From NCBI GenBank assembly GCA_009772895.1, contig WOUP01000005.1:124001-188000 (forward strand): a stretch of 64,000 nt of DNA. Reading direction: 5' to 3'. The position numbers and the translations under genes were made by a program. Positions 9,532 through 53,887 of this stretch are shown piece after piece. Below the pieces are notes generated by a model that did not search any database, had not been told where the DNA came from, and was given only the letters and a program-made list of their open reading frames with translations. This DNA comes from Puniceicoccaceae bacterium 5H. GTDB taxonomy: Bacteria; Verrucomicrobiota; Verrucomicrobiia; Opitutales; Oceanipulchritudinaceae. Numbering within the stretch: position 1 is the first letter of the stretch; the number at the start of each line of letters is the position of its first letter.

Positions 9532-12500
9532 ATGATTTCGCGCACCGTAGCGTCACTTTCCACCCTTCTCTGCCTGTCACTGACTCCCGCATATAGTGCC
9601 ACGACAGGGATCGACGCTCAACAGCTGACGGCAGATTCCGCCGACCAAGTTTCCTGGACGACCAGCAATCTGGAAACTTGCCAGCCGGATCTGCAAGCAC
9701 TCCAGGGAAACGGCTACGCCCTCAGCTCGCCGGACTTCGGGACAAACTACCTGTCCACGCAGTTCAGCGCGCGGAAGGTGGGCAAGCTGTCCGTCGAAAT
9801 CCGCCTTTCCCGTGCGGTTGACGTGCCCTACCGCGGCACCAGCCCGGGCATGCGGTTGAACTTCGGCGGTGACGACCTGATCGTCGCTTTCTCGCCTGAC
9901 GGCCAACGCATCCAACACGCGGGCGACCTCGGCAACAACTACGGCGGCCCCGGCTTCGTGCCCGGACAATGGTACCGCGTGGAGCTGACCTGGCAGAGCG
10001 ACGGCCTGCAGCTGCAGTATTTCAACGCCAACGGCCAGGCCCTGACCAGCCCGCAGTCCCTGCCTTTCAAGGACGAAGAACAGGCCGCCCGCTGGCTCGG
10101 CACCGGCGAAGTCCGCCTCGGCTCCTTCAATCACCTGGCCTCCTGCGACGGCACCGACAGCACGGTGGACGTGCGCAACTTCAAGCTCGAAGGCCTGCCC
10201 GAAGTGAGCAGCGAAGAGCAAGTCAGCGATATCGCCTACACGCACCCGGATCTCGTGGGCCTCGACGGCATGATCCACGAGTATGCCGACTTTGGCGCCA
10301 AGACCAAGGTGACCTACGACGCCGCGGACGGCGTGATCGGCCTCTACAATCCGCGCTACGCCACCAGCCACTTCGAAATCGAAGCCGACGGGGCCGCCAT
10401 CAAGACTTTCAGCACCGAGTTCCGCCTCTCCCACCCCGTGGCTGCCGGCAGCCGCGTGGATGGCCCGGGCCTGATCGCCCGCTTCGGCTCGCGCTACATC
10501 TGGGTCCGCTTCACCAGCGACGGCCAGCGCATCCAATGGGGCGGCACCGACGGCGCCCACTACGGCGGCCTTCCCTTCCAGCCGGGCGTGTGGTATCGCA
10601 TCACCCTCAATTTCTTCGGTGATCGCATCGAGATCGTCTACCACGACAAGGACGGCAACCAGCTCGCCAGCTTCTCTATGCCCTACAAGCAAGGCAGCGG
10701 CATCGAAGATTGGCGCGGCCCAGGCTTCATCCAGGTCGGCAACTTTAACGACAAGGCCACCGAGTCCGACAGCTTGACGCGCCTGGAAATGCGCAAGATC
10801 GAGCTCGAGAACGGCACCAAGGTCACCTTCGGCACCAGCTGGCTCACCCGCCACGTCTACAGCCGCAACGAAGGCGAGCAGAAGATCAAGTTCCAGTACG
10901 ACAACCTGTCGCTCAGCCGCCGCGCCGGCAAGCTGACGCCGATGCTGGACGGGGTCGCGCTCTCCGAGCCGGTCGACTTCGACCTGCCCGCCCTCTCCTC
11001 GGGCCAACTCGAGCTGCCCTTCGCCCCCAAAGACTTCAAGCCCGGCGAATATGACCTGGAGCTGGTCATGCACATCGACGGCAGCGACGACGAAGTGCTC
11101 AAACTCCCGCTGACCGTGGCCAAGCGCCGCAGCGCCGACGAGCTGCCCTATGAGACCTGGAACCGCTTTGACGTGGAACAGCTCGACCAGACCGCCACCT
11201 GGGGCTTCAACCAAAACAAGATGTGGTCCAGCCTGCTCGGCCTGCCGACCCGTGAACAGCTCGACGCCCACCTGGCCAAGGGCTTCACCCACGGCGGCCA
11301 CCTCGGCTCCACCACCTGGCTTTACGAAGAAAAGCGCCCGACGCTCGGCCAAAACGAGAACGACCGCACGATCGACTACTACGGTAACGAACAGGAGCGC
11401 GTGGACCCGTTCTCCAAGAGCTACCACGAAGTCATCATCAACTACGTGCTCGACGAACTCGGCAGCGTGGCCGATCACCAAGCCTTCACCAACCTGCTCG
11501 TCAACACCGAGAAGAAGGAAGGCCCCATCGCCTTTAACGCCGACGCGCTCGCCAATGCCCGCGAAACCGGCTACCTCGGGTCCAACGAAAACTTCCCCGA
11601 AGGCTTCATCACCCAGGATGTGCCCGAGCTCGACCTGAGCAACGACACGGTGGAACAACCGGTCAACGGCCTGATCTCGGCCGACAACCTGCATTACCGC
11701 ACCTGGCTGTGGTGGAAGCGTCACGGCGGCTACCAACCGATCCACAAGGCCCTCGGCGAGGCGATCGACCGCGAATACCCGGAGGTTGAGATGACCGTCG
11801 AATTCGCCCCCGAAGGCGCCGATTGGCTCGAGTTCTGGTATCGCACCGGCGGCGACGGCGAGAACGACCCGGTCTTCTATAACGGCCACATGGCGGACAT
11901 GCGTTACAGCGCCCGCAAGTTCGGCCACAAGATCTCCGCTCTCTTCCAGTTTGTAGCGGGCGAACAACCGCTCTCGCCCGCCATCTTCCGCGAGTCCTTC
12001 TGGACGGTCTTCTCCAATCGCCCGGACCGCATGGGCCACTGGGGCACCGACCGCGCCCTGAGCGAAAACAACGACGCCGAGCGCGCCGCCGACTTCGCGG
12101 CCCAGACGGCCGAGATGACCCGCCTGCACAACCAGCTTTCCGAACCGCTCTACCCGGCCCTGCGCCACTCCGAGCGCCCCCGCGCCAAGGTCGCCTTCCT
12201 CAAGAGCGAAGCCTCCTGGCTCTACCAGGGCACCAACGCCTCCAACTACATGCACGACTGGCGCAGCGCCGGCGTCCTGAAGTATCGCGAACGCGCCCTG
12301 AGCCTCGCCGGCATCGACTTCGAGCCCGTGCACGACGTGGATGTGCGTGAGGGCACCCTCGAGCGCTACGACTCGGTCTTCGTGCTCGCCACCGATGTGC
12401 TGCCCGACGACGTCTTCGCAGGCCTGAAGGAGTTTGCCCGCAATGGCGGCACCGTCTTCATGGACCAGAAGGCCGCCCAAACCTTCCCCTCCGTGCCCAA

Positions 12501-13224
12501 CACGGTGGTGGTCGATCCGGACTTCTTCATCATCGACAACCAGTCGCGCTGGTGGGACACGCCCTATGACGCCCGCATCATCTCCGACTACTACGAGTGC
12601 GCCCAGGTGCTGCGCGACGCCTACTTCAAGGCCGGCTTCAGCCCCGACGCCTGGGTCGACTCCACCAGCGCAGTCGTGAATGAACTTCGCGGTGGCGACG
12701 CCCGCTACGTCTTTGTGATCAACGACCTCCGCACCGACACCACGGCTCAGGCCGACGGCATCGAGCAGACGACCGACCTGCACCTCAAGGTCGACGGCAA
12801 CGTGAAGGTCTACGACTTGCTCAACCAGCAGGAGCTCTCCTACAAGAAGGGCAAGAACGGCACCATCACGATCGAAAACCTGAAACTGGGCAAGTGCGAC
12901 GGCCGCGCACTGCTCGTGGTGCCGCACAGCCTGGAGCGCCCCCGCATGGCCTCCCCCTACGTCACCCGCCGCGGCGAGCAAAACTACCTCTACCTCGCTG
13001 CCCAAAGCGGCCGCTACATGGTGGAAGGCAGCATCCCGGTGGAAGTGAAAGTCATCAACCCGCAGCAAGAATCGCTCGATGTCTCCGGCTACTACACCAT
13101 GGAAGACGGCGAGCTGATGATCCCCTTTACCGTGCCGGAAAATGAAAAGAACCGGGTGGTGCAAGTGATGGTCCGCTACATCCACTCCGACACCTGGACC
13201 CGACGCGCGCTCTTTTTGTGGTAA
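9532..13224 (+). CDS. Large secreted protein: two lectin-like domains plus glycosidase-like core
   Basis: 1230 residues with a signal peptide (STLLCLSLTPAYSA). Residues about 45-200 and 250-430 are internal duplicates with matching motifs (PDGQRIQHAG / SDGQRIQWGG; PGQWYRVELT / PGVWYRITLN), a LamG/concanavalin-like beta sandwich. A central region (about 540-880) looks like a TIM-barrel glycosidase. After it, a segment with VFVLATDVLPDDVFAGLKEFARNGGTVF resembles the glutamine-amidotransferase-like trimerisation domain of GH42 beta-galactosidases. A beta domain closes the protein. Family assignment is inference from layout; no catalytic residues are named. It is probably exported for polysaccharide breakdown, like the GH9 enzyme 3 kb upstream. 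Confidence 0.65.
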   Translation: MISRTVASLSTLLCLSLTPAYSATTGIDAQQLTADSADQVSWTTSNLETCQPDLQALQGNGYALSSPDFGTNYLSTQFSARKVGKLSVEIRLSRAVDVPYRGTSPGMRLNFGGDDLIVAFSPDGQRIQHAGDLGNNYGGPGFVPGQWYRVELTWQSDGLQLQYFNANGQALTSPQSLPFKDEEQAARWLGTGEVRLGSFNHLASCDGTDSTVDVRNFKLEGLPEVSSEEQVSDIAYTHPDLVGLDGMIHEYADFGAKTKVTYDAADGVIGLYNPRYATSHFEIEADGAAIKTFSTEFRLSHPVAAGSRVDGPGLIARFGSRYIWVRFTSDGQRIQWGGTDGAHYGGLPFQPGVWYRITLNFFGDRIEIVYHDKDGNQLASFSMPYKQGSGIEDWRGPGFIQVGNFNDKATESDSLTRLEMRKIELENGTKVTFGTSWLTRHVYSRNEGEQKIKFQYDNLSLSRRAGKLTPMLDGVALSEPVDFDLPALSSGQLELPFAPKDFKPGEYDLELVMHIDGSDDEVLKLPLTVAKRRSADELPYETWNRFDVEQLDQTATWGFNQNKMWSSLLGLPTREQLDAHLAKGFTHGGHLGSTTWLYEEKRPTLGQNENDRTIDYYGNEQERVDPFSKSYHEVIINYVLDELGSVADHQAFTNLLVNTEKKEGPIAFNADALANARETGYLGSNENFPEGFITQDVPELDLSNDTVEQPVNGLISADNLHYRTWLWWKRHGGYQPIHKALGEAIDREYPEVEMTVEFAPEGADWLEFWYRTGGDGENDPVFYNGHMADMRYSARKFGHKISALFQFVAGEQPLSPAIFRESFWTVFSNRPDRMGHWGTDRALSENNDAERAADFAAQTAEMTRLHNQLSEPLYPALRHSERPRAKVAFLKSEASWLYQGTNASNYMHDWRSAGVLKYRERALSLAGIDFEPVHDVDVREGTLERYDSVFVLATDVLPDDVFAGLKEFARNGGTVFMDQKAAQTFPSVPNTVVVDPDFFIIDNQSRWWDTPYDARIISDYYECAQVLRDAYFKAGFSPDAWVDSTSAVVNELRGGDARYVFVINDLRTDTTAQADGIEQTTDLHLKVDGNVKVYDLLNQQELSYKKGKNGTITIENLKLGKCDGRALLVVPHSLERPRMASPYVTRRGEQNYLYLAAQSGRYMVEGSIPVEVKVINPQQESLDVSGYYTMEDGELMIPFTVPENEKNRVVQVMVRYIHSDTWTRRALFLW

Positions 13225-43218: not shown

Positions 43219-45561
43219 TCAGGCCGTATCGCGCTGCTGGCGTTGCGCCTCGAGCTCGGAGATGAGTTCCTGCTCCTTGTCCATGAACTCCTTCACAAGG
43301 CGGGCCTTTTCCTCGCGCAGCCAGCGTTCCTGCTCGGCCTTGCGCTGATAGATCTCCTTGTTTTTCTCGCGCACCTCGCGCAAGTGCTTGGAGATCATCT
43401 TCTTTTCTTCGAGCAGGTTCTGGGCTTCCTGCGAAACTTCGGCGCGCATCTTCTCGATCTCCGCCATCATCTGCTCGCGCTCCTTCTTCAAGGCCTCGCG
43501 CTCTTCCTGCAGCTCGTTCACTTCGAGGTCGAACTGGTGATAGCCGGCCTCCAGCTCCTGCTGCCGGTCGAAGAGCGCACCTTCGCGTAGCTCCAGGTCT
43601 TCGATCGTCGCAGCGAGATTGCGCTCGCGCTCCTCGATCTTCTGCTGGCTCGCGCGCACTTCCTCTTCAAATTCCTCGGACTGGGCTTGCAGGGCCGCTT
43701 CCAGGTCCTTCAGCTCACGACCGCGCTGCTCCGCGTAGGCCTGGAACTCCTCACGATCGGCATCGAAGCCCTGCTGCTGTTCCCGCAGCGTAGACTGCTC
43801 CTCGTTCAACTGCTGGCGCTTCTCGCTGATTTCGGTGGACTGGGTTTCGTATTCCTGCTGCCACTCCTGCTTGCGCTGCTCCAGCTCGGTTGCCTCTTCG
43901 CGGGCCACCTGCAGGCGCGCCTCGGCCTCGCGCATCATTTCCTGGTTCTTGCGGCTCAGCTCGGCCATCTCGGCCTCCTGGTCTTCCAGGTCGGCCAGAC
44001 GGACCTCGGCGCGCGCCTTTTCCGCCTCAAAAGTATCCCGGGCCTCGCGAAAGGCCTCCTCCTGCGATTGCACCTCGGCCGCACGCTTTTCGTTTTCCTC
44101 GCGCATGGCCGTCAGCATGTCCTCCTGCTCGCTGAGCTCGGCCTCGCGGACCTGCAGGCCGCTCTCGACGCTCTTGAGCTCTTCGGAGCGCTCGCGCAGC
44201 TCCTCTTCGTAGGACTGCAACTCGGCCTTGCGCGCTTCGAGGCCGGCTTCGGCGGCATTCACCGCTTCCTGCCGCTCCGCGAGCTCTTGCAGGCGCTCGT
44301 CGGCCTGCTCCAGTGCCCGTTCGCGATTGGCGATCTCGCGCTCACGCTCGTTCAGCTCTTCCTGCATCCCCTCCAGCTCTTCCGCGCGCTCGGAGGTTTC
44401 GAGCATGCGCTGGCGCAGATTGTCCAATGCGCCCGCGTTTTCCTTTTCAAATTCCTCCTGCAGGGTTTCCAGGCGCGCCTCGGCTTCCTGCACCTTCGCC
44501 TGGGCCTCTTCCAGCTGTTTTTCGCGGCTGGCCAGATCCACGCGCAACTGGTTCAGGCCAGCCTTGACCCGCGCATCTTCATCGCGGCTCATGGCGATCT
44601 CGCGCTCCAACCCCTGCTTTTGCTCCCGCGCGTCCTCGATCTCCTGCTCAAGCTGCTGCTTGGTCTCCATCTGGTTCTGCAGCGCGCTGTCCAGCTGGCT
44701 CCGTTGCTGCGTCAGCTCCTGCTCGATGCTCTGCAGCTCTTGCTCCCGGGCCAACAAAGAACGTGCCTTTTCCTGCTGTTCCTGGTCGCGCGCCGCCCAT
44801 TCCGCTTCGCGCTCCTGAAAGATTTCGTCCTGACTGGCGATCCGCTCCTCGCGCTCGCGCAGCTCCAGCTCGCGCTGGGCCAGGTCTGCCTCCTGGTGCT
44901 CGAGCGCTTCGGTCGCCTCGGTGACGTGCGTCCGCTCCTTGTTCAGCTTTTCCTGCTTGCCGTAGATCTCGGATTCGCGAAAGGCGAGGTCCTGCTCTTT
45001 TTCGGCCAACTCGGCCTGCCAGTCGCGCACGCGCTCTTCGACCTCCGCCATGCCGTCCCCTCCTGCTTCGGCGGAGACGACGACCGGGGCCGGCACCGAC
45101 TCACCTTCGGCCAGGCCCAGCCCGGGCAGACGCTGAAACGTGCGATTGCTCAACACGAGTTGGCGGCGCACGGGCGCGCTCAGCCCGGTCAGCTTGAGTA
45201 AACGCTCACGCAAGACGGCTTCCTCCAACGGCCATTCAAACAAATCGTCCAAACCGACTCGCATCGCCTCGACCACGTGCTCGAAACGCGCAGCAGGCGT
45301 CGCCACCACCACCGGGATGTCCGGATAGGCGTGCTTGACCTTGGCAGCTGCGGCCAGGGCATTCTCGGCCGACTCCCCACCCATCAAGACACCAGAAGAC
45401 GTCTCCTCGGGCAGCCGGATCATCAACTCGTCGGCTGAGTCCAGACAAAGGGAATCAAACCCGAGTTCGTAGAGACGCAGGATCAATCCACAGCGCAACG
45501 TCTCGTCCGGCTGGATAATAAACCATGGAGCCGGCAGTTTGGAAGGGGCTGAAGCAGGCAT
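43219..45561 (-). CDS. Pseudo-receiver protein with about 600-residue coiled coil
   Basis: 780 residues. The first 125 resemble a receiver fold (WFIIQPDETLRCGLILRLYELGF, IPVVVATPAA, AMRVGLDDLFEWPLEEAVLRERLLKL), but no phosphorylatable Asp motif is seen (SSGVLMGGES). From about 170 to the end is an almost unbroken heptad coiled coil rich in Glu, Gln, Arg and Lys. No membrane segment or signal peptide. It may form a cytoskeletal or polar scaffold, similar in build to filament-forming coiled-coil proteins. Divergent from the PilM/PEGA/TonB gene across a 336-bp shared promoter region. Confidence 0.75.
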   Translation of the reverse strand: MPASAPSKLPAPWFIIQPDETLRCGLILRLYELGFDSLCLDSADELMIRLPEETSSGVLMGGESAENALAAAAKVKHAYPDIPVVVATPAARFEHVVEAMRVGLDDLFEWPLEEAVLRERLLKLTGLSAPVRRQLVLSNRTFQRLPGLGLAEGESVPAPVVVSAEAGGDGMAEVEERVRDWQAELAEKEQDLAFRESEIYGKQEKLNKERTHVTEATEALEHQEADLAQRELELREREERIASQDEIFQEREAEWAARDQEQQEKARSLLAREQELQSIEQELTQQRSQLDSALQNQMETKQQLEQEIEDAREQKQGLEREIAMSRDEDARVKAGLNQLRVDLASREKQLEEAQAKVQEAEARLETLQEEFEKENAGALDNLRQRMLETSERAEELEGMQEELNEREREIANRERALEQADERLQELAERQEAVNAAEAGLEARKAELQSYEEELRERSEELKSVESGLQVREAELSEQEDMLTAMREENEKRAAEVQSQEEAFREARDTFEAEKARAEVRLADLEDQEAEMAELSRKNQEMMREAEARLQVAREEATELEQRKQEWQQEYETQSTEISEKRQQLNEEQSTLREQQQGFDADREEFQAYAEQRGRELKDLEAALQAQSEEFEEEVRASQQKIEERERNLAATIEDLELREGALFDRQQELEAGYHQFDLEVNELQEEREALKKEREQMMAEIEKMRAEVSQEAQNLLEEKKMISKHLREVREKNKEIYQRKAEQERWLREEKARLVKEFMDKEQELISELEAQRQQRDTA

Positions 45562-45897
45562 GACGGGCGAAGGATGGTAAACAAGCAGCAGTAAGCCTCA
45601 TTTACGGCATCGGCAGCGGTTCGAAAACCTTAAGCCGAATAGCGCAAATTGATGACACGCAAGCAGGACCTTATGAAGGTGGAAGAATAGAGACAAGTCG
45701 AAAGCCCCTTACAAAACTTTTACGTACGAATTACCTATTTAGCGTGAGGGAAGTTGGCCGATAGTACCTTTGACCTTTACAAGGCGTATCCGCGCCGCCA
45801 ATAAACGAATTACCCTGTCTTCTACCCCCACTTTCTAGTTTCAACTCGCTAACAATCTAACAGCTCGCGTCCTTCCCTCGAGCTTCAAGGCTGACCC
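45562..45897. promoter_or_regulatory. 336-bp divergent promoter region
   Basis: AT-richer than its flanks, no gene seen. It separates the coiled-coil gene (minus) from the PEGA/TonB gene (plus) and must hold both promoters; none is assigned confidently. Confidence 0.45.
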
Positions 45898-48489
45898 ATG
45901 GATTCACTGCCCCTAGGCATGGTTGCTGATCAGACAGACGCCCAGTTGGCGTTTGCCTTGGTCTCTGATTCGCCAAATCTCCGCTACAAAGCCCTCTATC
46001 GTAGCCCAAAGAACCGGGAGAGCTGGGAGCAACTGCTGCCCGAATTCCTCCCTGCGCCAGACGAAATCAATCTCCGCTACTACCTCGAGCCGAAGGACAC
46101 CATCACCCGTTTTCGGCTCGACCCGCCCGCCGCGTGGAAGAACGACCCGCGCGCGGTGTGGAACGACCTCAAGGATGCCGGCGTGCACGCCAACAGCCAC
46201 ATGTTGGGCCTGTTTCAAGCCTCGACCGGCGAACCCTATTCCGGCGATGGGCCGGCGCTAGCCGTGGCGCTGCCCCGACACTACGTCCGCCAGGTAGGCC
46301 GCATGCTGGACAACGCGGAGGTCAGTCTCGACCGCCGCCACTTGCTCGCCGGTCTGCCGGCCAACCTGAGCTACCTCACCCCCGTCGCGCGCCAACAGGA
46401 GCGGGGCGGCCCGGTGGCACTCGTCGAATTGCGGGATGACCGTTGCGACCTCTGGATCATGGGCGATCAGGGCCTGCGCCTGCACCGCCAGACCTCGAGC
46501 GGCCTGAACGATCTCGTGAGCCGCTTGCAGACCGAGTTGAACCTCAAGTTCCCCGGTTCTGCAGCCAAGCTCGTCTACGAAGGCCTTTACGATTTCAGCT
46601 CCACCGCCGAAACCCTGACGGAAGACATCGGCAAGCGTTTGGGACAAGATCTGCTCGCCGCGGAAGAGATCATCGGAGAGCCCGTCCGCAACCTCGCCTT
46701 TACCTTCCTCCCCCCGTCGGCTGACTGGATGGCCCAGGCCCTCGCGGCACACGCTGGCCGTGAAGTCCTGCAATGGCCCAGCGCCCAAGGCAATGCCGAG
46801 CCGGCAGATGAAGAGAGCAACCTGCCGCAGTGCTTCATCGCGCCCGCCGTGGCGGGAGACCTTGCGAAGGTGGAACGTGAAAGCGAAACCGCGTGGCGTT
46901 GGTATCTGGAAGACGATGAAAGCGCATTCCTCGTGCCGGCCGACGAGGCCGTGGCCACCGGGAAGGGCATGACCCGCTCGACCTTTGTCTCCATCGCGGG
47001 CAGCTCTGCCGAGGAGGAAGAGGAGGCCACCATGGCCGCCGACGAAGACTTTGATGTGGCCGATGAGGGCAGCCCGGCACCCGCCGAGGAAAAGGCCGCT
47101 GCTGCCGCCGCGCCCGCCCCGGCGACGCCCTCCCCTGCTCCGGCGCCCAAACCGGCGCACCGCCCGTCTGAAGCCGCGCCGCCGGCGAAAAAGAAGAGCA
47201 ATCCCGTGCCGATTATCGCGGCGGCCGTCGTGCTGCTATTGGCGGGAGGCGGAGCCTTCTTTGCCCTGGGCGGCAAGGACGAAGGTGCCAAGACAGTGCA
47301 GGCCCAGCCGAAACTGACCCCCGAGCAGCAAAAACAGGCGGACGCCGAAGCCAAGCGCAAGGCCGAAGAGGAAGCCCAACGCCAAGCCGAGGAAGAGGCC
47401 CGCCGCAAGGAAGAAGAGGAAGCCCGCATTACGGCCGAAGCCGCCGCTCTGGCCGAAAAGATGCGCGCCGAAGAGGAGGCCGAGCGTAAAGCCGCCGAAG
47501 AGGCCGCCGAACTGGAGCGCCTGGCCAAACAGGGCAGCCTGACGGTGACCGGCTTGCCGGAAGGCACCATCATTCGCGTGAACGGCAAGGAAATCGGCCG
47601 CAATGCGATTGAAGATTACGCCATCGACCCAGGCACGTACTATGTCGCGCTGGAAAATCCGGACTACGAAACCGCCGTCCAGGAAGTCACCATCGACGAA
47701 AAGGAAGACTTTGCCCTGGAATCGCCCACAATGTCTCACGTCGAAGGCCAGGTCGTGCTCAACAGCCAGCCGCGCGGCGCCACCTACACCCTTTACCTGC
47801 AGGATGACGACACCCCTGTGCAGGAAGGTGCCACGCCCGCTACCCTCAATCTGGCGATTGGCGACTACCGCGTCGAATTCAGCCGCCCGGGCTGGGAAAG
47901 CCGCTCGGAAACCTTCAGCATCGCCAAGGGCAACCTCAAGAATATCGATACGACCTTCGAGACCGGCACCATCGCCCTGACCTCCGAGCCCACGGGTGCC
48001 GACGTGCGCCTCAATGGCGAGAAGGTCGGCGTCACGCCGTATACCAGCACGGGCATGGCCCCCGGCATCTATCGCTATCAGGTCCACCGCCCCGGCTATG
48101 AAAGCGAAGACATCAGCATTGAGCTCAAGGAAGGCGGCGAAGTGGCGCAACAGCTGACGCTCAACGACATCAACCGCATCTACCGCGCGAGCGAGATCGA
48201 TGTGCCGCCCATGCCCCTCTATCAGCCGGAGCCCACCATCCCGGCGGTAAGCAAGATGGAAGAGATCATGGTCGAGTTCGTGATCGATCAGCAGGGCCAG
48301 CCGACGGACGTCACCATCGTCAAATCCACCAACGAAAAGCTGAACAAGGAGATCTTGCGCGCGTTGACGGAGTGGCGCTTCCAGCCGGCCATGCGCCGCG
48401 ACCACCCCGCCCGCATCAAAGTGCGCCTACCCCTGGTCTTCCAGCCGCAGGCAACCGACGAGACCGAACGCTGGACGGCAACCCGCTAA
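45898..48489 (+). CDS. PilM-like / TM / coiled coil / PEGA x3 / TonB C-terminus chimera
   Basis: 863 residues. The N-terminal 330 residues lack a signal and look like an ASKHA/PilM-type domain (VALVELRDDRCDLWIMGDQ, then LHRQTSSGLNDLVSRLQTEL). A Pro/Ala/Glu linker leads to one membrane helix (VPIIAAAVVLLLAGGGAFFA, about 437-458). A TolA-like Glu/Ala/Lys coiled coil follows (475-545). Three PEGA-type repeats come next (about 545-605, 620-690, 695-755; LTVTGLPEGTIIRVNGKEIG, ALTSEPTGADVRLNGEKVG). The TonB C-terminal domain closes the protein (VEFVIDQQGQPTDVTIVKS, ALTEWRFQPAMR). This suggests a cytoplasm-to-outer-membrane linker. Function is inferred only. Confidence 0.75.
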   Translation: MDSLPLGMVADQTDAQLAFALVSDSPNLRYKALYRSPKNRESWEQLLPEFLPAPDEINLRYYLEPKDTITRFRLDPPAAWKNDPRAVWNDLKDAGVHANSHMLGLFQASTGEPYSGDGPALAVALPRHYVRQVGRMLDNAEVSLDRRHLLAGLPANLSYLTPVARQQERGGPVALVELRDDRCDLWIMGDQGLRLHRQTSSGLNDLVSRLQTELNLKFPGSAAKLVYEGLYDFSSTAETLTEDIGKRLGQDLLAAEEIIGEPVRNLAFTFLPPSADWMAQALAAHAGREVLQWPSAQGNAEPADEESNLPQCFIAPAVAGDLAKVERESETAWRWYLEDDESAFLVPADEAVATGKGMTRSTFVSIAGSSAEEEEEATMAADEDFDVADEGSPAPAEEKAAAAAAPAPATPSPAPAPKPAHRPSEAAPPAKKKSNPVPIIAAAVVLLLAGGGAFFALGGKDEGAKTVQAQPKLTPEQQKQADAEAKRKAEEEAQRQAEEEARRKEEEEARITAEAAALAEKMRAEEEAERKAAEEAAELERLAKQGSLTVTGLPEGTIIRVNGKEIGRNAIEDYAIDPGTYYVALENPDYETAVQEVTIDEKEDFALESPTMSHVEGQVVLNSQPRGATYTLYLQDDDTPVQEGATPATLNLAIGDYRVEFSRPGWESRSETFSIAKGNLKNIDTTFETGTIALTSEPTGADVRLNGEKVGVTPYTSTGMAPGIYRYQVHRPGYESEDISIELKEGGEVAQQLTLNDINRIYRASEIDVPPMPLYQPEPTIPAVSKMEEIMVEFVIDQQGQPTDVTIVKSTNEKLNKEILRALTEWRFQPAMRRDHPARIKVRLPLVFQPQATDETERWTATR

Positions 48490-48513: not shown

Positions 48514-48553
48514 AGGCGGCCTCCTCACCAACTGGGGAGCCGCCTTTCTTTAT
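48514..48553 (+). terminator. Terminator after the PEGA/TonB gene
   Basis: AGGCGGC pairs with GCCGCCT, with further inner pairing, and is followed by TTCTTTATT. It may also serve the convergent membrane-protein gene. Confidence 0.8.
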
Positions 48554-49164
48554 TCCTGATGGGAGCGGTGCTGGAATTGCTGGAACCACCAGCCGAGCAG
48601 ACCCAGCACCAGGAAGGCCGACAGCGCCAATCCGTAGCGGCCCAGGTCCCCCCAAGCCGGCGTCACGGGTTCCACGATACCCAACACGTCGGGGCCGCCC
48701 AGGATAAACCACGTGCCAAAGACAAAGCGGAACGCCCCCGTAAAGGCCGTCAGCAGCATGAGCGCCGGTTGGACGAGCAGAGCCGCCACGCCACCGGAAA
48801 CCAGTGCTGCCCCGGCCGTACTGAGCAGGCGCAGCCATTCCGCCTCCTGCTGCATCAGGCTGGCGGTCAACAGGCCCACCACGAAGGCCACGGACAGCGC
48901 GACGGCGGCCCGCAGCATCTGAAACGCGAGCAAACCGCCCAGTATCAGCCCTGCCACGGCGCCGACGATCGTCGCCGACATATTATCCGGCGCCCAGTGC
49001 AGCGCCAGCAGGCCGCCCGCCAGTGCGCCGACGAGCGCCAGCAGCATCGAGAGCGTCGCGCGGAAGATCTTGAAGCCAAAGAAGCAGTCAAACAGACCGC
49101 TGATCGCCAGCAAGGCATAGACCGCCAAGGCAGCGGGATAAGGCAGCAGGATGGGGCCCTCCAT
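48550..49164 (-). CDS. Polytopic membrane protein, DUF4203-like
   Basis: 204 residues from the ATG at 49164 (MEGPILLPYPAAL); residues upstream of it read antisense to a neighbouring gene. About six or seven hydrophobic helices rich in Ala, Gly and Leu (LSMLLALVGALAGGLLALHW, IVGAVAGLILGGLLAFQML, LALSAFLVLGLLGWWF). This resembles DUF4203/TMEM198-type proteins, with unknown function. It is the last gene of the minus-strand run that begins with fabG (47 bp after the zincin gene). Confidence 0.7.
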   Translation of the reverse strand: MEGPILLPYPAALAVYALLAISGLFDCFFGFKIFRATLSMLLALVGALAGGLLALHWAPDNMSATIVGAVAGLILGGLLAFQMLRAAVALSVAFVVGLLTASLMQQEAEWLRLLSTAGAALVSGGVAALLVQPALMLLTAFTGAFRFVFGTWFILGGPDVLGIVEPVTPAWGDLGRYGLALSAFLVLGLLGWWFQQFQHRSHQE

Positions 49165-49211
49165 AGAGCCGCATGCTAGCGTCCGGATCCCGTAGAACAA
49201 GCGCGAAGCGC

Positions 49212-49568
49212 TTAGTCCAGATCTCGCTCCGCCAGATCGTCTTCGCCCCAGCCAAACAGGTGCCCCAATTCGTGCAGGTAGGTGCGCTCCACCTCTTCGG
49301 CAAAGCCGGTCCCCTCTTCCGCGGCGTAGGCGGCGATGGGCTCCAGAAACAGGTAGATGCGGGAAACGGCGGGCACGTCGTCCCAATCCGTCGTCTCGCC
49401 ATCGAACAGGCCCAGCAGGTCGTCCCCAAACTCCGCCGCGATTTCCTCATCCGGTCGATCCGTCAGCAGCACGGGGGTGCGCTGGGCGCGCTCACGCAGC
49501 GCGTCGGGCAAGGAGGCGAGCGTCTCCGCGACGATACGTTCCGCCAACTGGAGACGCGTTTCGCTCAC
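49212..49568 (-). CDS. Zincin-like metallopeptidase family protein (PF06262-type)
   Basis: 118 residues. The single clear motif is HELGHLFGW near residue 99, an HExxH zinc site followed by Gly/Trp. The N-terminal part is acidic (DRPDEEIAAEFGDDLLGLFDGE), as in the short 'possible zinc metallopeptidase' family. The length fits. Substrate unknown. It starts 14 bp after fabF and is probably in the same transcript. Confidence 0.8.
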   Translation of the reverse strand: MSETRLQLAERIVAETLASLPDALRERAQRTPVLLTDRPDEEIAAEFGDDLLGLFDGETTDWDDVPAVSRIYLFLEPIAAYAAEEGTGFAEEVERTYLHELGHLFGWGEDDLAERDLD

Positions 49569-49581
49569 CGCCGAAAGGGCG

Positions 49582-50841
49582 CTAGTCTTCTAGCTTGCGG
49601 AAGACCACGACGCCGTTGTGGCCGCCGAAGCCGAGGTTGCTGGACATGGCCACGCGCACCGGCTGCTCGACCGCCTGGTTCGGCACATAGTCGAGATCGC
49701 AATCGGGATCGGGCGTGGTGTAATTGATCGTCGGCGGAATGATGCCGTCGGTGATCGTCTTGATGCAGGCAATGGCTTCGATGCCGCCTGCGGCGCCCAG
49801 CAAGTGGCCGGTCATGGACTTGGTGGAGCTGATCTTGAGACGCTTGGCGTCCTCACCCCACACTGCCTTGATGGCGAGCGTTTCGCCCTTGTCGTTGTAG
49901 GGGGTCGACGTGCCGTGGGCGTTGATGTAGTCCACCTCCTCCGGCTGGAGACCGGCGGATTTGAGCGCGTTCTGCAGGCACACCTTCAGCCCGGTGCCGT
50001 CCGGGTCGGGCGAGGTAATGTGGAACGCGTCGCATGTGGAGGCGTGGCCCAGCAGCTCACAGTAAATCTTCGCCCCGCGCTTCTGGGCGTGCTCGAGGGT
50101 CTCGAGCACGAGCACCCCGGAGCCCTCCCCCATCACAAAGCCGTCGCGGTCCTTGTCGAAGGGGCGGGACGCCTGCTGCGGCGTGTCGTTAAAGCTGGTG
50201 CTCATGGCCTTCATGCTGCAAAAGCCGCCAAAGCCGAGACGCGTCACGCTGGCTTCGGCTCCGCCGGCCAGCATCACGTCGGCTTCGCCGAGTTGCAGCA
50301 TACGCATGGCGTCCGCAATCGAGTGGGTAGCCGTCGCGCAGGCGCTGACGATGCCGTAGTTCGGCCCCTTGAGGTTGAGGTCGATCGCCACGATGCCGCT
50401 CGCCATGTTGGTGATGATCATCGGCACCATGAAGGGCGAGATCTTGCGAGCGCCGCCCTCGAACATGCGGAAATTCTGCTTCTCGATCGTGTCGATGCCG
50501 CCGATACCGCTGCCGACGAGGCAGCCGATGCGGAACGGATCGAGCCCGGCCGTATCGAGGCCGGCATCCACGTAGGCCTGCCGGGAGGCTGCCACGGCCA
50601 GCTGGGTATAGCGGTCGCGCTTGCGGGACTCCTTCACATCCATGTGGTCGGCGGGGTTGAAGCCTTTGACTTCGCCCCCCACCTGACACGGCATTTCGGA
50701 GACGTCGAAACCTTCGACCCGGCCGATGCCGGAGCGACCGGCCTTCAGCCCGTCCCAGTATTCATCAACGTTATTACCGAGCGGGGTCAATGCACCCAGC
50801 CCGGTCACCACAATACGTGAATGCTTCGACACAGTGGACAT
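49582..50841 (-). CDS. fabF: 3-oxoacyl-ACP synthase II (FabF)
   Basis: 419 residues. The condensing triad is visible: Cys in the ACATATHS segment near 165, His in NAHGTSTPYND near 305 and His in TGHLLGAAGG near 345. It elongates acyl-ACP with malonyl-ACP. Start MSTVSKHSRIVVTGLG at 50841. The start codon is preceded by a hairpin and T run instead of a clear Shine-Dalgarno. Order fabG-acpP-fabF is the normal fatty-acid cluster. Confidence 0.96.
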   Translation of the reverse strand: MSTVSKHSRIVVTGLGALTPLGNNVDEYWDGLKAGRSGIGRVEGFDVSEMPCQVGGEVKGFNPADHMDVKESRKRDRYTQLAVAASRQAYVDAGLDTAGLDPFRIGCLVGSGIGGIDTIEKQNFRMFEGGARKISPFMVPMIITNMASGIVAIDLNLKGPNYGIVSACATATHSIADAMRMLQLGEADVMLAGGAEASVTRLGFGGFCSMKAMSTSFNDTPQQASRPFDKDRDGFVMGEGSGVLVLETLEHAQKRGAKIYCELLGHASTCDAFHITSPDPDGTGLKVCLQNALKSAGLQPEEVDYINAHGTSTPYNDKGETLAIKAVWGEDAKRLKISSTKSMTGHLLGAAGGIEAIACIKTITDGIIPPTINYTTPDPDCDLDYVPNQAVEQPVRVAMSSNLGFGGHNGVVVFRKLED

Positions 50842-51207: not shown

Positions 51208-51954
51208 TCACATCACCATACCACCGTCAACCGTAAAAGTTTGACCGGTGATATAGCCAGATTCCTCGGAGGAAAGATACGTAACGAGACGGGAGATATC
51301 CTCCACCTTGCCCAAACGGCGAAGCGGAACCTGCTGCACGATAACCTCTTTGGTCTTTTCGTCCAGCACGGACGTCATATCCGTCTCAATAAAGCCCGGG
51401 CACACCGCATTGGCGGTGATGCCGCGCTTGGCAAATTCGCGGGCGACAGTCTTGGTGAAGCCGAGCATGCCCGCCTTGGCGGCAGCGTAATTGGCCTGGC
51501 CGGCATTGCCCATCTGGCCGACCACGGAGCTGATGTTGATCACGCGGCCCCAGCGGTTGCGGCCCATGGCCGTCGTCAGCGCACGGGTCCAATAAAAGCA
51601 GGAATCGAGGTTGGTGCGGATCACATCGTGCCAGTCCTCGTCCTTCATGCGCATCAAGAGCGTGTCGCGCGTGATGCCGGCGTTGTTGACGAGGATGTCG
51701 ATCTTGCCGTGCTCCTTCAGCAGCTCTTCGGCCGCCTGGGCCACCGCTGCGCCGTCGGATACGTCCACCGCACGGGCCACGGCGTTGCCCCCGCTGGCGC
51801 GGATCGCTTCCGCCGCGCCGCCGCATGAAGATTCGCTCTTGCTGACGCAGATCACCTTCACGCCTTCGCGGGCCAGCTCTTCCGCAATGGCCTTGCCAAT
51901 GCCGCGGCCAGCTCCGGTGACCAGCGCCACCCGGTCGGTAAACGTCAAATTCAT
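51208..51954 (-). CDS. fabG: 3-oxoacyl-ACP reductase (FabG)
   Basis: 248 residues from the ATG at 51954 (MNLTFTDRVALVTGAGRGIG). A short-chain dehydrogenase with cofactor motif TGAGRGIG, NNAG near 88, catalytic Ser in INISSVVGQ, and Tyr/Lys in ANYAAAKAG. The C-terminus GYITGQTFTVDGGMVM is typical. It reduces 3-oxoacyl-ACP with NADPH. First fab gene of the cluster. Confidence 0.96.
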   Translation of the reverse strand: MNLTFTDRVALVTGAGRGIGKAIAEELAREGVKVICVSKSESSCGGAAEAIRASGGNAVARAVDVSDGAAVAQAAEELLKEHGKIDILVNNAGITRDTLLMRMKDEDWHDVIRTNLDSCFYWTRALTTAMGRNRWGRVINISSVVGQMGNAGQANYAAAKAGMLGFTKTVAREFAKRGITANAVCPGFIETDMTSVLDEKTKEVIVQQVPLRRLGKVEDISRLVTYLSSEESGYITGQTFTVDGGMVM

Positions 51955-52003
51955 GGGGCACACTGCGCCAAAGCCTGCGCAGCTTGGCAAGCCTTATTCC
52001 TGG

Positions 52004-52219
52004 CTACTCCTCGTACATCAGCAAGTGAATGTCTCCCGGAGAAAACGGTACCCCCTCCCCATAGTGCCGGGTCGCCGCGAGCATCAGGTTGTCGTGCAAT
52101 TCCTCCAGGCTGCTGCCCGAGGTCTTGATCCCGGCGTTGAGACAGTCGGCCTCGTATGTGCCGGCGTCGCGTTGGCAAACCACTTCGAAAAACAAAGGCG
52201 AAAGGGCGGTAGCTGCCAT
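52004..52219 (-). CDS. Small HicB-like domain protein, orphan
   Basis: 71 residues. The pattern FEVVCQRDAGTYEADCLNAGIKTSGSSLEELHDNLMLAATRHYG resembles the HicB RNase-H-like fold (beta-beta-beta-alpha-beta with the 'G x S x EE' helix). No HicA toxin and no DNA-binding extension are nearby, so it is probably not a working antitoxin. It lies 49 bp upstream of fabG on the same strand. Family call is tentative. Confidence 0.5.
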   Translation of the reverse strand: MAATALSPLFFEVVCQRDAGTYEADCLNAGIKTSGSSLEELHDNLMLAATRHYGEGVPFSPGDIHLLMYEE

Positions 52220-52352
52220 TTAGGTAGGGTTTTGGATCCACGCCCCAGACCAGGGGCATACAAGGAGAGACTGCCAGAATCGCAAAAATGTTCAATAGTG
52301 ATTGCGAATCTTGACACCGATCCTATTTTCCCGCCATTAAAACGGTCGTTTA

Positions 52353-53390
52353 ATGCTCGTGCTTCGTCGCCCATTCTCGTTGCTGATGTCGCTGCTGCCC
52401 TGGTGGGTGGCGGGCACACCTGTGCACGCTCAGGACAGCGCCCTGCATTCGCCCTCGCTGATCAGCTTTTACTTCGAAAACGACCTGTTTGCCCGCACGG
52501 ACAAGAACTACACCAATGGCGTGAAGCTGACCTGGGTCTCGCCCGACCTGCCTCCGCCCGAGGACAAGAGCCAGCCGGTCAACTGGGCGATCTGGATGAT
52601 GGATCACCTGCCGTGGATCGACCCGGAAGACGCTCTGGACCGGCATGTCGCCTTTTCCTTCGGGCAAAATATCTACACGCCGCAGGATATCGAAAGCACC
52701 GAAGTGCAGACCGACGACCGTCCCTATGCGGCCTGGCTCTACGGCTCCATCGGGCTGCACCACCGCACGGAACGCTGGCTGGACACCTTCGAGATGACCT
52801 TTGGCGTCGTCGGCCCGCTCGCCATGGGGGAACAGACGCAAAACCTCGTGCACCGCATCAAGGGCGCCCCGCGAGCCCGCGGCTGGGACAACCAGATCGA
52901 CAACGAACCGGGCTTCAACCTCGTATGGGAGCGCAAGTGGCGGCACCCGCTCTACGGCGATCCCGACCGGATGAGCATCGAGCTTTTCAACCACCTGGGG
53001 TGCTCCGTCGGCAACGTCTTCACCTACGCCAACACGGGCGGTGGCCTGCGAGTGGGCTGGAACATGACCGAAGACTACGGGGTCGCGATCATCCGCCCGG
53101 CGGGCGACGCCAGTGTGCCCGCCACCCGTGCGGACAACGAGCGCTTCAGCCTCTACGTGTTCGGCTCGTTCGACACGCGCGGGGTGTTCCGCGACATCAC
53201 GCTCGACGGCAATACCTTCGAAGAGAGCCACCGCGCCAACAAGGAGCCCGTCGTAACGGACTTCGTCGGCGGCGTCTCGATGGTCTACGACCAGTGGAAG
53301 CTCTCCTACACCCAGATCGTGCGCACCTCGCAGTTCAAGGAAGGCGGGCAGCACGCCTTCGGCTCCGTCAACCTGTCGTTTACGTATTGA
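52353..53390 (+). CDS. LpxR-family outer-membrane lipid A deacylase (DUF2219)
   Basis: 345 residues with a signal peptide (LLMSLLPWWVAGTPVHA). The LpxR hallmark FYFENDLFARTDKNYTNGVKLTW near residue 37 carries the conserved Asn-Asp pair, and DDRPYAAWLYGSIGLHH near 115 is the second conserved segment. A 12-stranded beta-barrel ending in FTY is expected. Known members remove the 3'-acyloxyacyl chain of lipid A. With lpxA and lpxC-fabZ nearby this fits envelope remodelling. A receiver protein follows directly. Confidence 0.85.
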   Translation: MLVLRRPFSLLMSLLPWWVAGTPVHAQDSALHSPSLISFYFENDLFARTDKNYTNGVKLTWVSPDLPPPEDKSQPVNWAIWMMDHLPWIDPEDALDRHVAFSFGQNIYTPQDIESTEVQTDDRPYAAWLYGSIGLHHRTERWLDTFEMTFGVVGPLAMGEQTQNLVHRIKGAPRARGWDNQIDNEPGFNLVWERKWRHPLYGDPDRMSIELFNHLGCSVGNVFTYANTGGGLRVGWNMTEDYGVAIIRPAGDASVPATRADNERFSLYVFGSFDTRGVFRDITLDGNTFEESHRANKEPVVTDFVGGVSMVYDQWKLSYTQIVRTSQFKEGGQHAFGSVNLSFTY

Positions 53391-53464
53391 AGATGGACCA
53401 AGACACCGCGACCGGGCCACACTCCGGCTTGACAAAGCCTCTGGGGCTTTCAGCCTGCCGGGCT

Positions 53465-53887
53465 ATGGCCATTCCCCTTCTGCTGGTCGATGACAACAAC
53501 CGCTACGCGAAGCTGCTGACGGATTACTTCGCGCCGCGCGGGTTTACCCTGGAACGGGCGACCAGTGGCGAAGAGGGCCTCGAGAAGTTCCGCGCCCACG
53601 CGCCCGACCACTTTGCCGCCGTCATCACGGACATCACGATGGAGACGCGCCTGGCGGGCTACTGGATGGTGCGCCGCCTGCGCCGCGCGGGCTACAAGGG
53701 CACGATCATGGTCGCCAGCACGGCCTTCAACGAGATCCCGATCATCGACCTGCACCGCGCCCTCTACCGAGGCCTGGACGTGCAGTTCCTCATCCCCAAG
53801 CGCGAGCTGAAGGAAGGGCGCCCCTACTTCTACCCGCTCGGCTTCTTCAAGGCCCCGCTGACCGAATGGCGTCCTGAAGACGCCTAG
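53465..53887 (+). CDS. Stand-alone receiver (response regulator) protein
   Basis: 140 residues from the ATG at 53465 (MAIPLLLVDDNNRYAKLL); an in-frame ATG at 53393 would add 24 unconvincing residues. Receiver features: acidic pair DD near 8, phosphoacceptor Asp in AVITDITMETR near 58, Thr/Ser in VASTAF, and Lys in IPKREL. No output domain, so it acts by protein contact or as a phosphate sink. It starts 74 bp after the LpxR gene, but the longer version would follow it by 2 bp, which would suggest coupling. Confidence 0.8.
   Translation: MAIPLLLVDDNNRYAKLLTDYFAPRGFTLERATSGEEGLEKFRAHAPDHFAAVITDITMETRLAGYWMVRRLRRAGYKGTIMVASTAFNEIPIIDLHRALYRGLDVQFLIPKRELKEGRPYFYPLGFFKAPLTEWRPEDA

What the first reader, a model, noticed from the sequence alone, without database searches (positions are those of the whole stretch)
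45898..48489. PilM-like domain fused through a membrane helix to PEGA repeats and a TonB C-terminus
A cytosolic ASKHA/PilM-like N-terminus, one TM helix, a TolA-like coiled coil, three PEGA-type repeats and a TonB C-terminal domain in one 863-residue chain would link cytoplasm, periplasm and outer membrane. TonB proteins normally have no large cytosolic domain and PilM normally has no periplasmic part. No ExbB/ExbD gene is beside it. I do not know a described system with this layout.
Basis: partly seen in the sequence, partly recalled or inferred. Interest (0 to 1): 0.7.

Follow-up and report, generated by a model that had tools for sequence, protein, structure and literature searches.

The report
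PilM-derived TonB envelope-spanning protein
This gene makes a single protein that joins an inside-the-cell pilus-machine part (a PilM-type actin-like fold) to an outer-membrane-reaching TonB tail, and in many related bacteria its neighbour is a receiver/coiled-coil scaffold gene, so it is probably a mechanical link through the cell envelope whose exact job is untested.

Summary
Window 45898-48489 encodes an 863-aa chain: residues 1-330 fold like PilM (Z 19.2 to the PilM-PilN structure), then a Pro/Ala-rich linker, one membrane helix (439-457), a 69-residue helix, three PEGA repeats and a TonB C-terminal domain (Pfam above cut-off; Z 12.9 to TonB). I found the same layout in 24 genomes. The N-domain family was seen only in the window's own order (named relatives: Opitutales, Verrucomicrobiota). 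Its nearest soluble relative is a PilM-like protein in operons with a secretin; all membrane-bound forms make one clade apart from it. New here: an adjacent, usually divergent, gene for a receiver plus long coiled coil (a pseudo-receiver in the window) in 11 of 24 genomes (coil only in 3 more); in one genus the protein ends a cluster with T2SSE, T2SSF, secretin and giant prepilin-like genes. Precedents exist for each half (GspL; Myxococcus GltG; FrzS for the partner), so "no described system" is right only for the combination. Best reading: a trans-envelope tether derived from a type IV filament machine that couples the coiled-coil scaffold to the outer membrane. Function is inferred only.

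The parts
45898..48489 (+). Whole gene, 863 aa: PilM-like domain, linker, membrane helix, coil, PEGA x3, TonB C-terminal domain
45898..46887 (+). Residues 1-330, PilM/ASKHA-fold cytosolic domain
   Evidence: AF2 model pTM 0.77; PilM 2ych Z 19.2; hhalign to PilM-like family 99.7%, E 5.6e-27
46537..46596 (+). Residues 214-233, most conserved stretch (LxLKFxGSAxKLxYxxxYDF), probable partner-binding surface (role inferred)
   Evidence: invariant L214 L216 K217 F218 S221 A222 L225 Y227 D232 F233 in 11 sequences; L214 L216 K217 F218 A222 L225 D232 in 14
46888..47193 (+). Residues 331-432, Pro/Ala/acidic cytosolic linker, disordered in the model
   Evidence: pLDDT under 50 at 294-427
47212..47268 (+). 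Residues 439-457, single membrane helix, Lys on the N-terminal side
47323..47529 (+). Residues 476-544, long charged helix (TolA-like composition)
   Evidence: DSSP of model; weak tolA_full match below cut-off
47533..47715 (+). PEGA repeat 1 (546-606)
47746..47934 (+). PEGA repeat 2 (617-679)
47965..48168 (+). PEGA repeat 3 (690-757)
48265..48444 (+). TonB C-terminal domain (790-849)
   Evidence: PF03544 E 1.7e-11; Z 12.9 to TonB CTD
48515..48553 (+). Hairpin followed by T-rich run, likely terminator; gene stands alone
   Evidence: read from sequence by eye
43219..45561 (-). Divergent partner gene, 780 aa: N-terminal pseudo-receiver lacking the phospho-acceptor Asp, then long coiled coil
45562..45897 (.). 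336-bp intergenic region between the divergent pair, presumably shared promoter region (inferred)

Best explanation
The protein is a bitopic trans-envelope tether that arose from a duplicated PilM-like alignment protein of a type IV filament machine and gained a membrane helix, periplasmic spacers (helix and PEGA) and a TonB C-terminal domain. Inside the cell the actin-fold domain is a docking platform, without conserved nucleotide-binding motifs, that most likely binds the product of the neighbouring gene, a receiver/coiled-coil scaffold. Outside, the PEGA repeats act as spacers and the TonB domain clasps an outer-membrane or periplasmic partner by strand addition. The pair would thus fix a cytosolic scaffold, and probably a type IV filament or secretion machine, to the outer membrane at a defined site, working like FrzS/PilM or AglZ/GltG-GltJ of Myxococcus. 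Shown: domains, fold, one-clade origin of the N-domain, gene pairing, the filament-machine cluster in one genus. Inferred: binding partners, tethering, location, link to motility or secretion.
For: Fold and domains. Homology to a PilM-like family (hhalign 99.7%, E 5.6e-27 over 317 columns) whose members in L031, L035 and L067 lie before PilN/PilO-like genes (so named by eye from size, helix and position) and a secretin (Pfam Secretin in L031); that family's best PDB sequence match is PilM, though weak (E 0.12). Membrane-bound forms are one clade against 20 soluble ones (SH-aLRT 100). Neighbour: in 11 of 24 genomes with the full layout a receiver+coil gene is adjacent (16-438 bp), in 3 more a coil without receiver, in 10 none. 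Searching 273 genomes of the order with the receiver alignment, 15 hits reach E <= 2.7e-39 and the next is 1.7e-26; 13 of the 15 lie within 2 kb of such a protein, but 11 of those 13 were in the query alignment; of the 4 not in it, 2 lie beside one and 2 do not. In 3 of 3 genomes of one genus the gene directly follows a PilC-like gene (T2SSF by Pfam in L038) and large prepilin-like genes; in G015 one contig also holds T2SSE and secretin; in G012 a receiver/coil gene sits at the far end of that cluster on the same contig. FrzS is a pseudo-receiver/coil regulator of type IV pili (PMC11580455, passage).
Against: Ten of 24 have no such neighbour, and in the window no filament-machine gene is nearby. 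The machine cluster is seen in one genus only. Two of four independent receiver/coil genes stand without a tether gene. No partner of the TonB domain was identified. No binding between the two proteins was tested; a complex could not be modelled here. The three genes between T2SSE and secretin in that cluster have no Pfam match, and the 305-aa one shows no similarity to either PilM-like profile.
Confidence: 0.5

Rival explanations
1. It is a structural part of a type IV pilus or type II secretion assembly: one chain replaces the PilM-N-O-P bridge, with the TonB domain contacting the secretin or its periplasmic collar.
For: PilM homology; cluster with T2SSF, T2SSE, secretin in one genus; GspL as a PilM-like domain with a membrane helix.
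Against: The window's genome keeps a separate soluble PilM-like gene with PilN/PilO-like and secretin genes, so the bridge is not missing; the gene is not near machine genes in most genomes; no PilN-like domain was matched.
Confidence: 0.22
2. It is an energised TonB protein with an added cytosolic control domain: ExbB/ExbD from elsewhere pull it to open receptors.
For: Good TonB domain; 13 MotA/ExbB matches in the genome; in G004 an ExbB-ExbD-TonB cluster lies about 3-5 kb away.
Against: No MotA/ExbB match on the window's contig, whereas several other TonB_C places of this genome lie within 3.5 kb of one. No His in the membrane helix in 24 of 24, though 3 of 4 TonB genes beside ExbB in this genome lack it too, so this is weak.
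Confidence: 0.15
3. It is a cell-shape or division scaffold like FtsA/MreB anchors, tying a coiled-coil cytoskeleton to the outer membrane.
For: FtsA is the next best fold (Z 16.4); coiled-coil partner; PEGA and TonB domains as envelope links.
Against: Sequence kinship is to a PilM-like operon protein; no division or shape genes were recognised among the neighbours scanned.
Confidence: 0.1

Closest known systems
PilM (type IV pilus) and the soluble PilM-like family of the same order
   Same: Fold and, for the latter, clear sequence homology of the N-domain
   Different: PilM is soluble and sits in pilMNOPQ; here a membrane helix and periplasmic half are fused and the gene stands apart
GspL/EpsL (type II secretion)
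   Same: Actin-fold cytosolic domain + one membrane helix + periplasmic part (cyto-EpsL 1yf5 Z 12.4, no better than other actin folds)
   Different: Periplasmic part of GspL is PilN-like; here PEGA repeats and TonB
Myxococcus GltG (and, from recall, GltJ) of the Agl-Glt gliding machine
   Same: Cytosolic domain + membrane helix + TonB C-terminus (PMC3169522 Table 1)
   Different: Cytosolic domain is FHA, not PilM-like; no PEGA listed; no glt genes recognised here
FrzS and AglZ of Myxococcus (for the neighbour gene)
   Same: Receiver domain lacking phosphorylation residues + long coiled coil (FrzS; AglZ layout from recall)
   Different: Kinship was not tested; resemblance of layout only
TonB/TolA
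   Same: C-terminal domain fold and Pfam match
   Different: Large N-terminal cytosolic domain, PEGA spacers, no ExbB beside it

Membership tests
PilM (T4P alignment protein) | Actin-like (ASKHA) PilM fold | tested here: met
   2ych Z 19.2, 305 residues, rmsd 4.4
PilM (T4P alignment protein) | Sequence match to PilM_2 (PF11104) | tested here: not met
   no match at E <= 0.1; but hhalign to the PilM-like operon family 99.7%
PilM (T4P alignment protein) | Soluble, no membrane helix | tested here: not met
   helix at 439-457; present in 24 of 24
PilM (T4P alignment protein) | Gene in a pilMNOPQ operon | tested here: not met
   no such genes beside it in the window; the soluble paralogue has them
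PilM (T4P alignment protein) | Nucleotide-binding motifs | tested here: inconclusive
   invariant columns hold no phosphate-loop pattern; judged by eye, no structure-based check
TonB | TonB C-terminal domain | tested here: met
   PF03544 above cut-off; Z 12.9
TonB | Membrane helix at the N-terminus, short cytosolic tail | tested here: not met
   438 residues precede the helix
TonB | ExbB/ExbD partner genes beside it | tested here: not met
   no MotA/ExbB match on the contig; ExbD not searched genome-wide
TonB | Motor-contact SHLS motif in the membrane helix (PMC12204202 passage) | tested here: not met
   0 of 24 have His; weak test, see report
GspL | Cytosolic actin-fold + one membrane helix + periplasmic part | tested here: met
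GspL | PilN-like ferredoxin-fold periplasmic domain | tested here: not met
   PEGA and TonB_C instead
Glt gliding proteins (GltG/GltJ) | Cytosolic domain, membrane helix, TonB C-terminus | tested here: met
   layout only
Glt gliding proteins (GltG/GltJ) | FHA domain (GltG) | tested here: not met
   no FHA match in the chain
FrzS/AglZ type (neighbour gene) | Receiver lacking phospho-acceptor, followed by coiled coil | tested here: met
   layout only; some relatives keep an Asp at that position
FrzS/AglZ type (neighbour gene) | Common descent with FrzS or AglZ | not tested
   no Myxococcus sequence was compared

The most novel reading that the evidence does not exclude
Opitutales have a two-protein trans-envelope machine, undescribed so far, in which a receiver/coiled-coil scaffold is hooked to the outer membrane by a fused PilM-TonB protein: a convergent counterpart of the Myxococcus Agl-Glt focal-adhesion linkage built from type IV pilus parts, serving surface movement, filament placement or secretion.
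Probability: 0.3. Interest if true: 0.85.

Novelty: new variant of a known kind. Interest (0 to 1): 0.6.

Why it matters
It shows a pilus alignment protein being rebuilt into a one-chain link from cytoplasm to outer membrane, and names a concrete partner gene. If the pair works as proposed, it gives Verrucomicrobiota a testable scaffold-to-outer-membrane linkage and a second, independent example of the logic known from Myxococcus motility.

Tried and rejected
PilM by sequence alone: Pfam gave nothing at E <= 0.1 and a profile of 11 N-domains found no PDB sequence at E <= 1; the fold search settled it. PF11104 matches elsewhere in the genome looked like canonical PilM, but the C18 one is MreB by its sequence (by eye); the C2 one was not read. 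ORFs 48559-49179 and 49173-49727 were first considered as PilN/PilO; they have no Pfam or NCBIfam match and look like low-complexity antisense frames (by eye). Tol-Pal linkage in genus g3 was considered from gene order and rejected by Pfam (HAD hydrolase, glycosidase, RNB exonuclease). The 305-aa gene beside T2SSE in genus g9 was considered as PilM and is not similar by profile. Membrane-helix His as a test of ExbB coupling was dropped as weak, because 3 of 4 ExbB-adjacent TonB genes of the same genome lack it too. PilM + PEGA domain + TonB: 0 papers hold all three terms; wider searches gave nothing on this layout (listings only). A search for a GltJ zinc-finger/GYF paper gave none, so GltJ details are from recall. 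Other paper listings were used only to pick papers or led nowhere.

L078, L079 and L081 are counted as genomes of their own because their contigs match none of the others.

Full report
Check of the observation. The ORF runs 45898-48489 on the + strand, ATG start, 863 aa; a hairpin with a T-rich run follows it (by eye) and a 336-bp gap separates it from the divergent gene 43219-45561. Pfam finds three PEGA stretches (E 6e-27) and TonB_C at 790-849 (44.9 bits, cut-off 24.6), and no PilM at E <= 0.1. One membrane segment at 439-457 is preceded by Lys. AlphaFold2 on the whole chain with 14 sequences gave mean pLDDT 69, with PEGA and TonB regions mostly 80-95, a helix 476-544, and low confidence over most of 294-475. 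The N-domain alone gave pTM 0.77, mean pLDDT 76.8.

Fold of the ends. The N-domain model aligns to PilM 2ych at Z 19.2 (305 residues, rmsd 4.4), other PilM entries 15.4-18.4 and FtsA 14.7-16.4; an actin-like protein of unknown function (3hrg) gives 14.2; cyto-EpsL/GspL gives 12.4, level with actins, pantothenate kinases and MreB at 11.6-12.8. In the whole-chain model the TonB part aligns to FoxA-bound TonB at Z 12.9 over 85 residues and to BtuB-bound TonB at 10.6. Foldseek agrees.

Relatives. A search of 55 related genomes with the N-domain found matches in 33; of 273 genomes of the order 98 have one at E <= 1e-8; of 387 genomes drawn from the phylum 44 have one at E <= 1e-10 and all 44 are of the same order. 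Named relatives from a separate collection are MAGs titled Opitutales, Opitutae, Opitutus, Puniceicoccales or Verrucomicrobia (taxonomy). Most matches are proteins of about 335-420 aa without the periplasmic half. The full layout (N-domain, membrane helix, three or four PEGA, TonB_C) was found in 24 genomes: 11 by Pfam and 13 by local profiles built from those 11. Ten further membrane-bound proteins from 7 genomes keep the N-domain but end in one PEGA repeat (3) or in other sequence (7). One genus also has three short forms without a strong membrane helix.

Origin. The soluble relative in the window's own genome (L031:8739-9797) is followed by PilN-like and PilO-like genes (so named by eye from size, N-terminal helix and position), a small gene and a secretin (Secretin by Pfam); the same order of genes recurs in L035 and L067. 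Profile comparison of 11 membrane-type N-domains with 20 soluble ones gives 99.7%, E 5.6e-27 over 317 columns. A tree of 57 N-domains puts the 20 soluble ones on one side of a branch with SH-aLRT 100 and the 37 others on the other side (quick method, no bootstrap, some long branches, 16 of 54 inner forks open). The simplest reading is one duplication of a PilM-like gene in this order, then fusion, with later change of the periplasmic end.

Conservation inside the domain. In 11 sequences the invariant residues concentrate at 214-233, and in 14 more divergent ones seven of these remain. No phosphate-loop pattern is invariant. I read this as a binding surface on an actin-fold platform, not an ATPase; this is inference.

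The neighbour. The divergent gene encodes 780 aa: an N-terminal receiver-like domain whose phospho-acceptor position is Gly in the window, then a long charged coiled coil. Several relatives keep an Asp at that position, so only part of the family are clear pseudo-receivers. Receiver matches by Pfam were found in 7 of 10 such genes scanned, of which only 3 exceed the curated cut-off; L039, L034 and the coil-only L062 gene gave none. A profile of nine of them finds the same type next to the tether gene, 16-438 bp away, in 11 of 24 genomes with the full layout (W, L034, L039, L041, L051, L052, L055, L076, L078, L079, L081); three (L040, L042, L043) have a coil without receiver; ten (L036, L037, L038, L044, L048, L049, L050, L059, L063, L091) have neither adjacent (some of these contigs are short). 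Four of the 11 (L076, L078, L079, L081) were not in the profile. Among the ten variant proteins, those of G064 (first copy), G168, G070 and G084 have it within 170 bp of one copy, G090 and G109 within 1.8 kb, G064's second copy not, and G120's contig ends just beyond.

Is the pairing specific? Searching 273 genomes of the order with an alignment of 13 receiver domains gave 15 hits at E <= 2.7e-39, then a gap to 1.7e-26. Thirteen of the 15 are within 2 kb of a membrane-bound N-domain protein, but 11 of these were in the alignment. Of the four that were not, G070 and G109 are beside one and G219 and G259 are not. So the pairing is real and spread over several families, but neither gene strictly requires the other next door.

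Link to a filament machine. In three genomes of one genus (G009, G012, G015) the gene directly follows a PilC-like gene and very long prepilin-like genes (T2SSF by Pfam in L038). In G015 the same 30-kb contig also holds secretin and T2SSE genes. In G012 a 1207-aa receiver/coil gene lies at the other end of the cluster on the same contig, one gene beyond a 748-aa gene of the T2SSE gene's length and place; in G009 a 1215-aa one lies in the same position, on another contig than the tether gene (those two 748-aa genes were not scanned with Pfam). The three genes between T2SSE and secretin have no Pfam match; two have one N-terminal membrane segment as PilN/PilO would (by eye), and the 305-aa one is not similar to PilM-like profiles. 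The window's genome has nine T2SSE matches of its own, none on the window's contig.

Energy source. The genome has 16 TonB_C places and 13 MotA/ExbB places; several TonB genes lie within 3.5 kb of an ExbB match, whereas the window's contig has none. None of 24 membrane helices holds His, but three of four ExbB-adjacent TonB genes in this genome lack it too, so this does not decide. In G004 an ExbB-ExbD-TonB cluster lies about 3-5 kb from the gene with unrelated genes between.

What is known. GspL combines a PilM-like cytosolic domain, a membrane helix and a PilN-like periplasmic part (PMC3815138, PMC3724824, passages). GltG of Myxococcus combines a cytosolic FHA domain, a membrane helix and PF03544 and was tested by two-hybrid against the AglR motor protein (PMC3169522, passages; the result sentence was cut off in what I saw). 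FrzS is a pseudo-receiver with a large coiled coil that regulates type IV pili, and PilB is stated to interact directly with PilM there (PMC11580455, passages). AglZ as a pseudo-receiver/coil protein is from recall; one passage seen describes AglZ differently, as a secreted vWA protein (PMC12204202), which I did not resolve. No paper in the library held PEGA domain, TonB and PilM together, and wider term searches showed nothing on this layout (listings).

Verdict. A real, conserved protein family, so far seen only in one order: a new variant of known envelope-linking designs, with a new partner gene. The mechanism (scaffold docking inside, TonB-type grip outside) is the best inference; machine, location and partner remain to be shown.

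Noticed in passing
L038:7676-10702, L036:14207-17221, L037:10184-12778: Very large proteins (864-1008 aa) with a type IV prepilin-like N-terminus, in two of the three loci with a further neighbour of over 1000 aa, near PilC-like genes in one genus; giant pseudopilins of unknown role.
   Followed up: partly
L056:6623-11245 and L057:7455-12047: Two membrane-bound PilM-like proteins in tandem whose C-terminal parts match neither the PEGA nor the TonB profile, beside a receiver-containing gene.
   Followed up: partly
L045:4461-5825, L046:9142-10548, L047:9132-10574: Short forms (454-480 aa) that group with the membrane-bound clade but show no strong membrane helix and end in copies of a YRGTPVYAD-like motif.
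   Followed up: no
window 51611-53887 (+): 758-aa frame with a TTG start and a receiver domain only at its C-terminus; the N-terminal 600 residues match no Pfam family.
   Followed up: no
window 9532-13224 (+): 1230-aa ORF with no Pfam match at E <= 0.001.
   Followed up: no
L044:13879-15809: ExbB, ExbD and TonB-type genes about 3-5 kb from the tether gene in one genome (G004).
   Followed up: partly
L062:10107-13731, L061:1-4941: A receiver-type gene about 1.7 kb from a one-PEGA variant, with a separate coil gene between them.
   Followed up: partly
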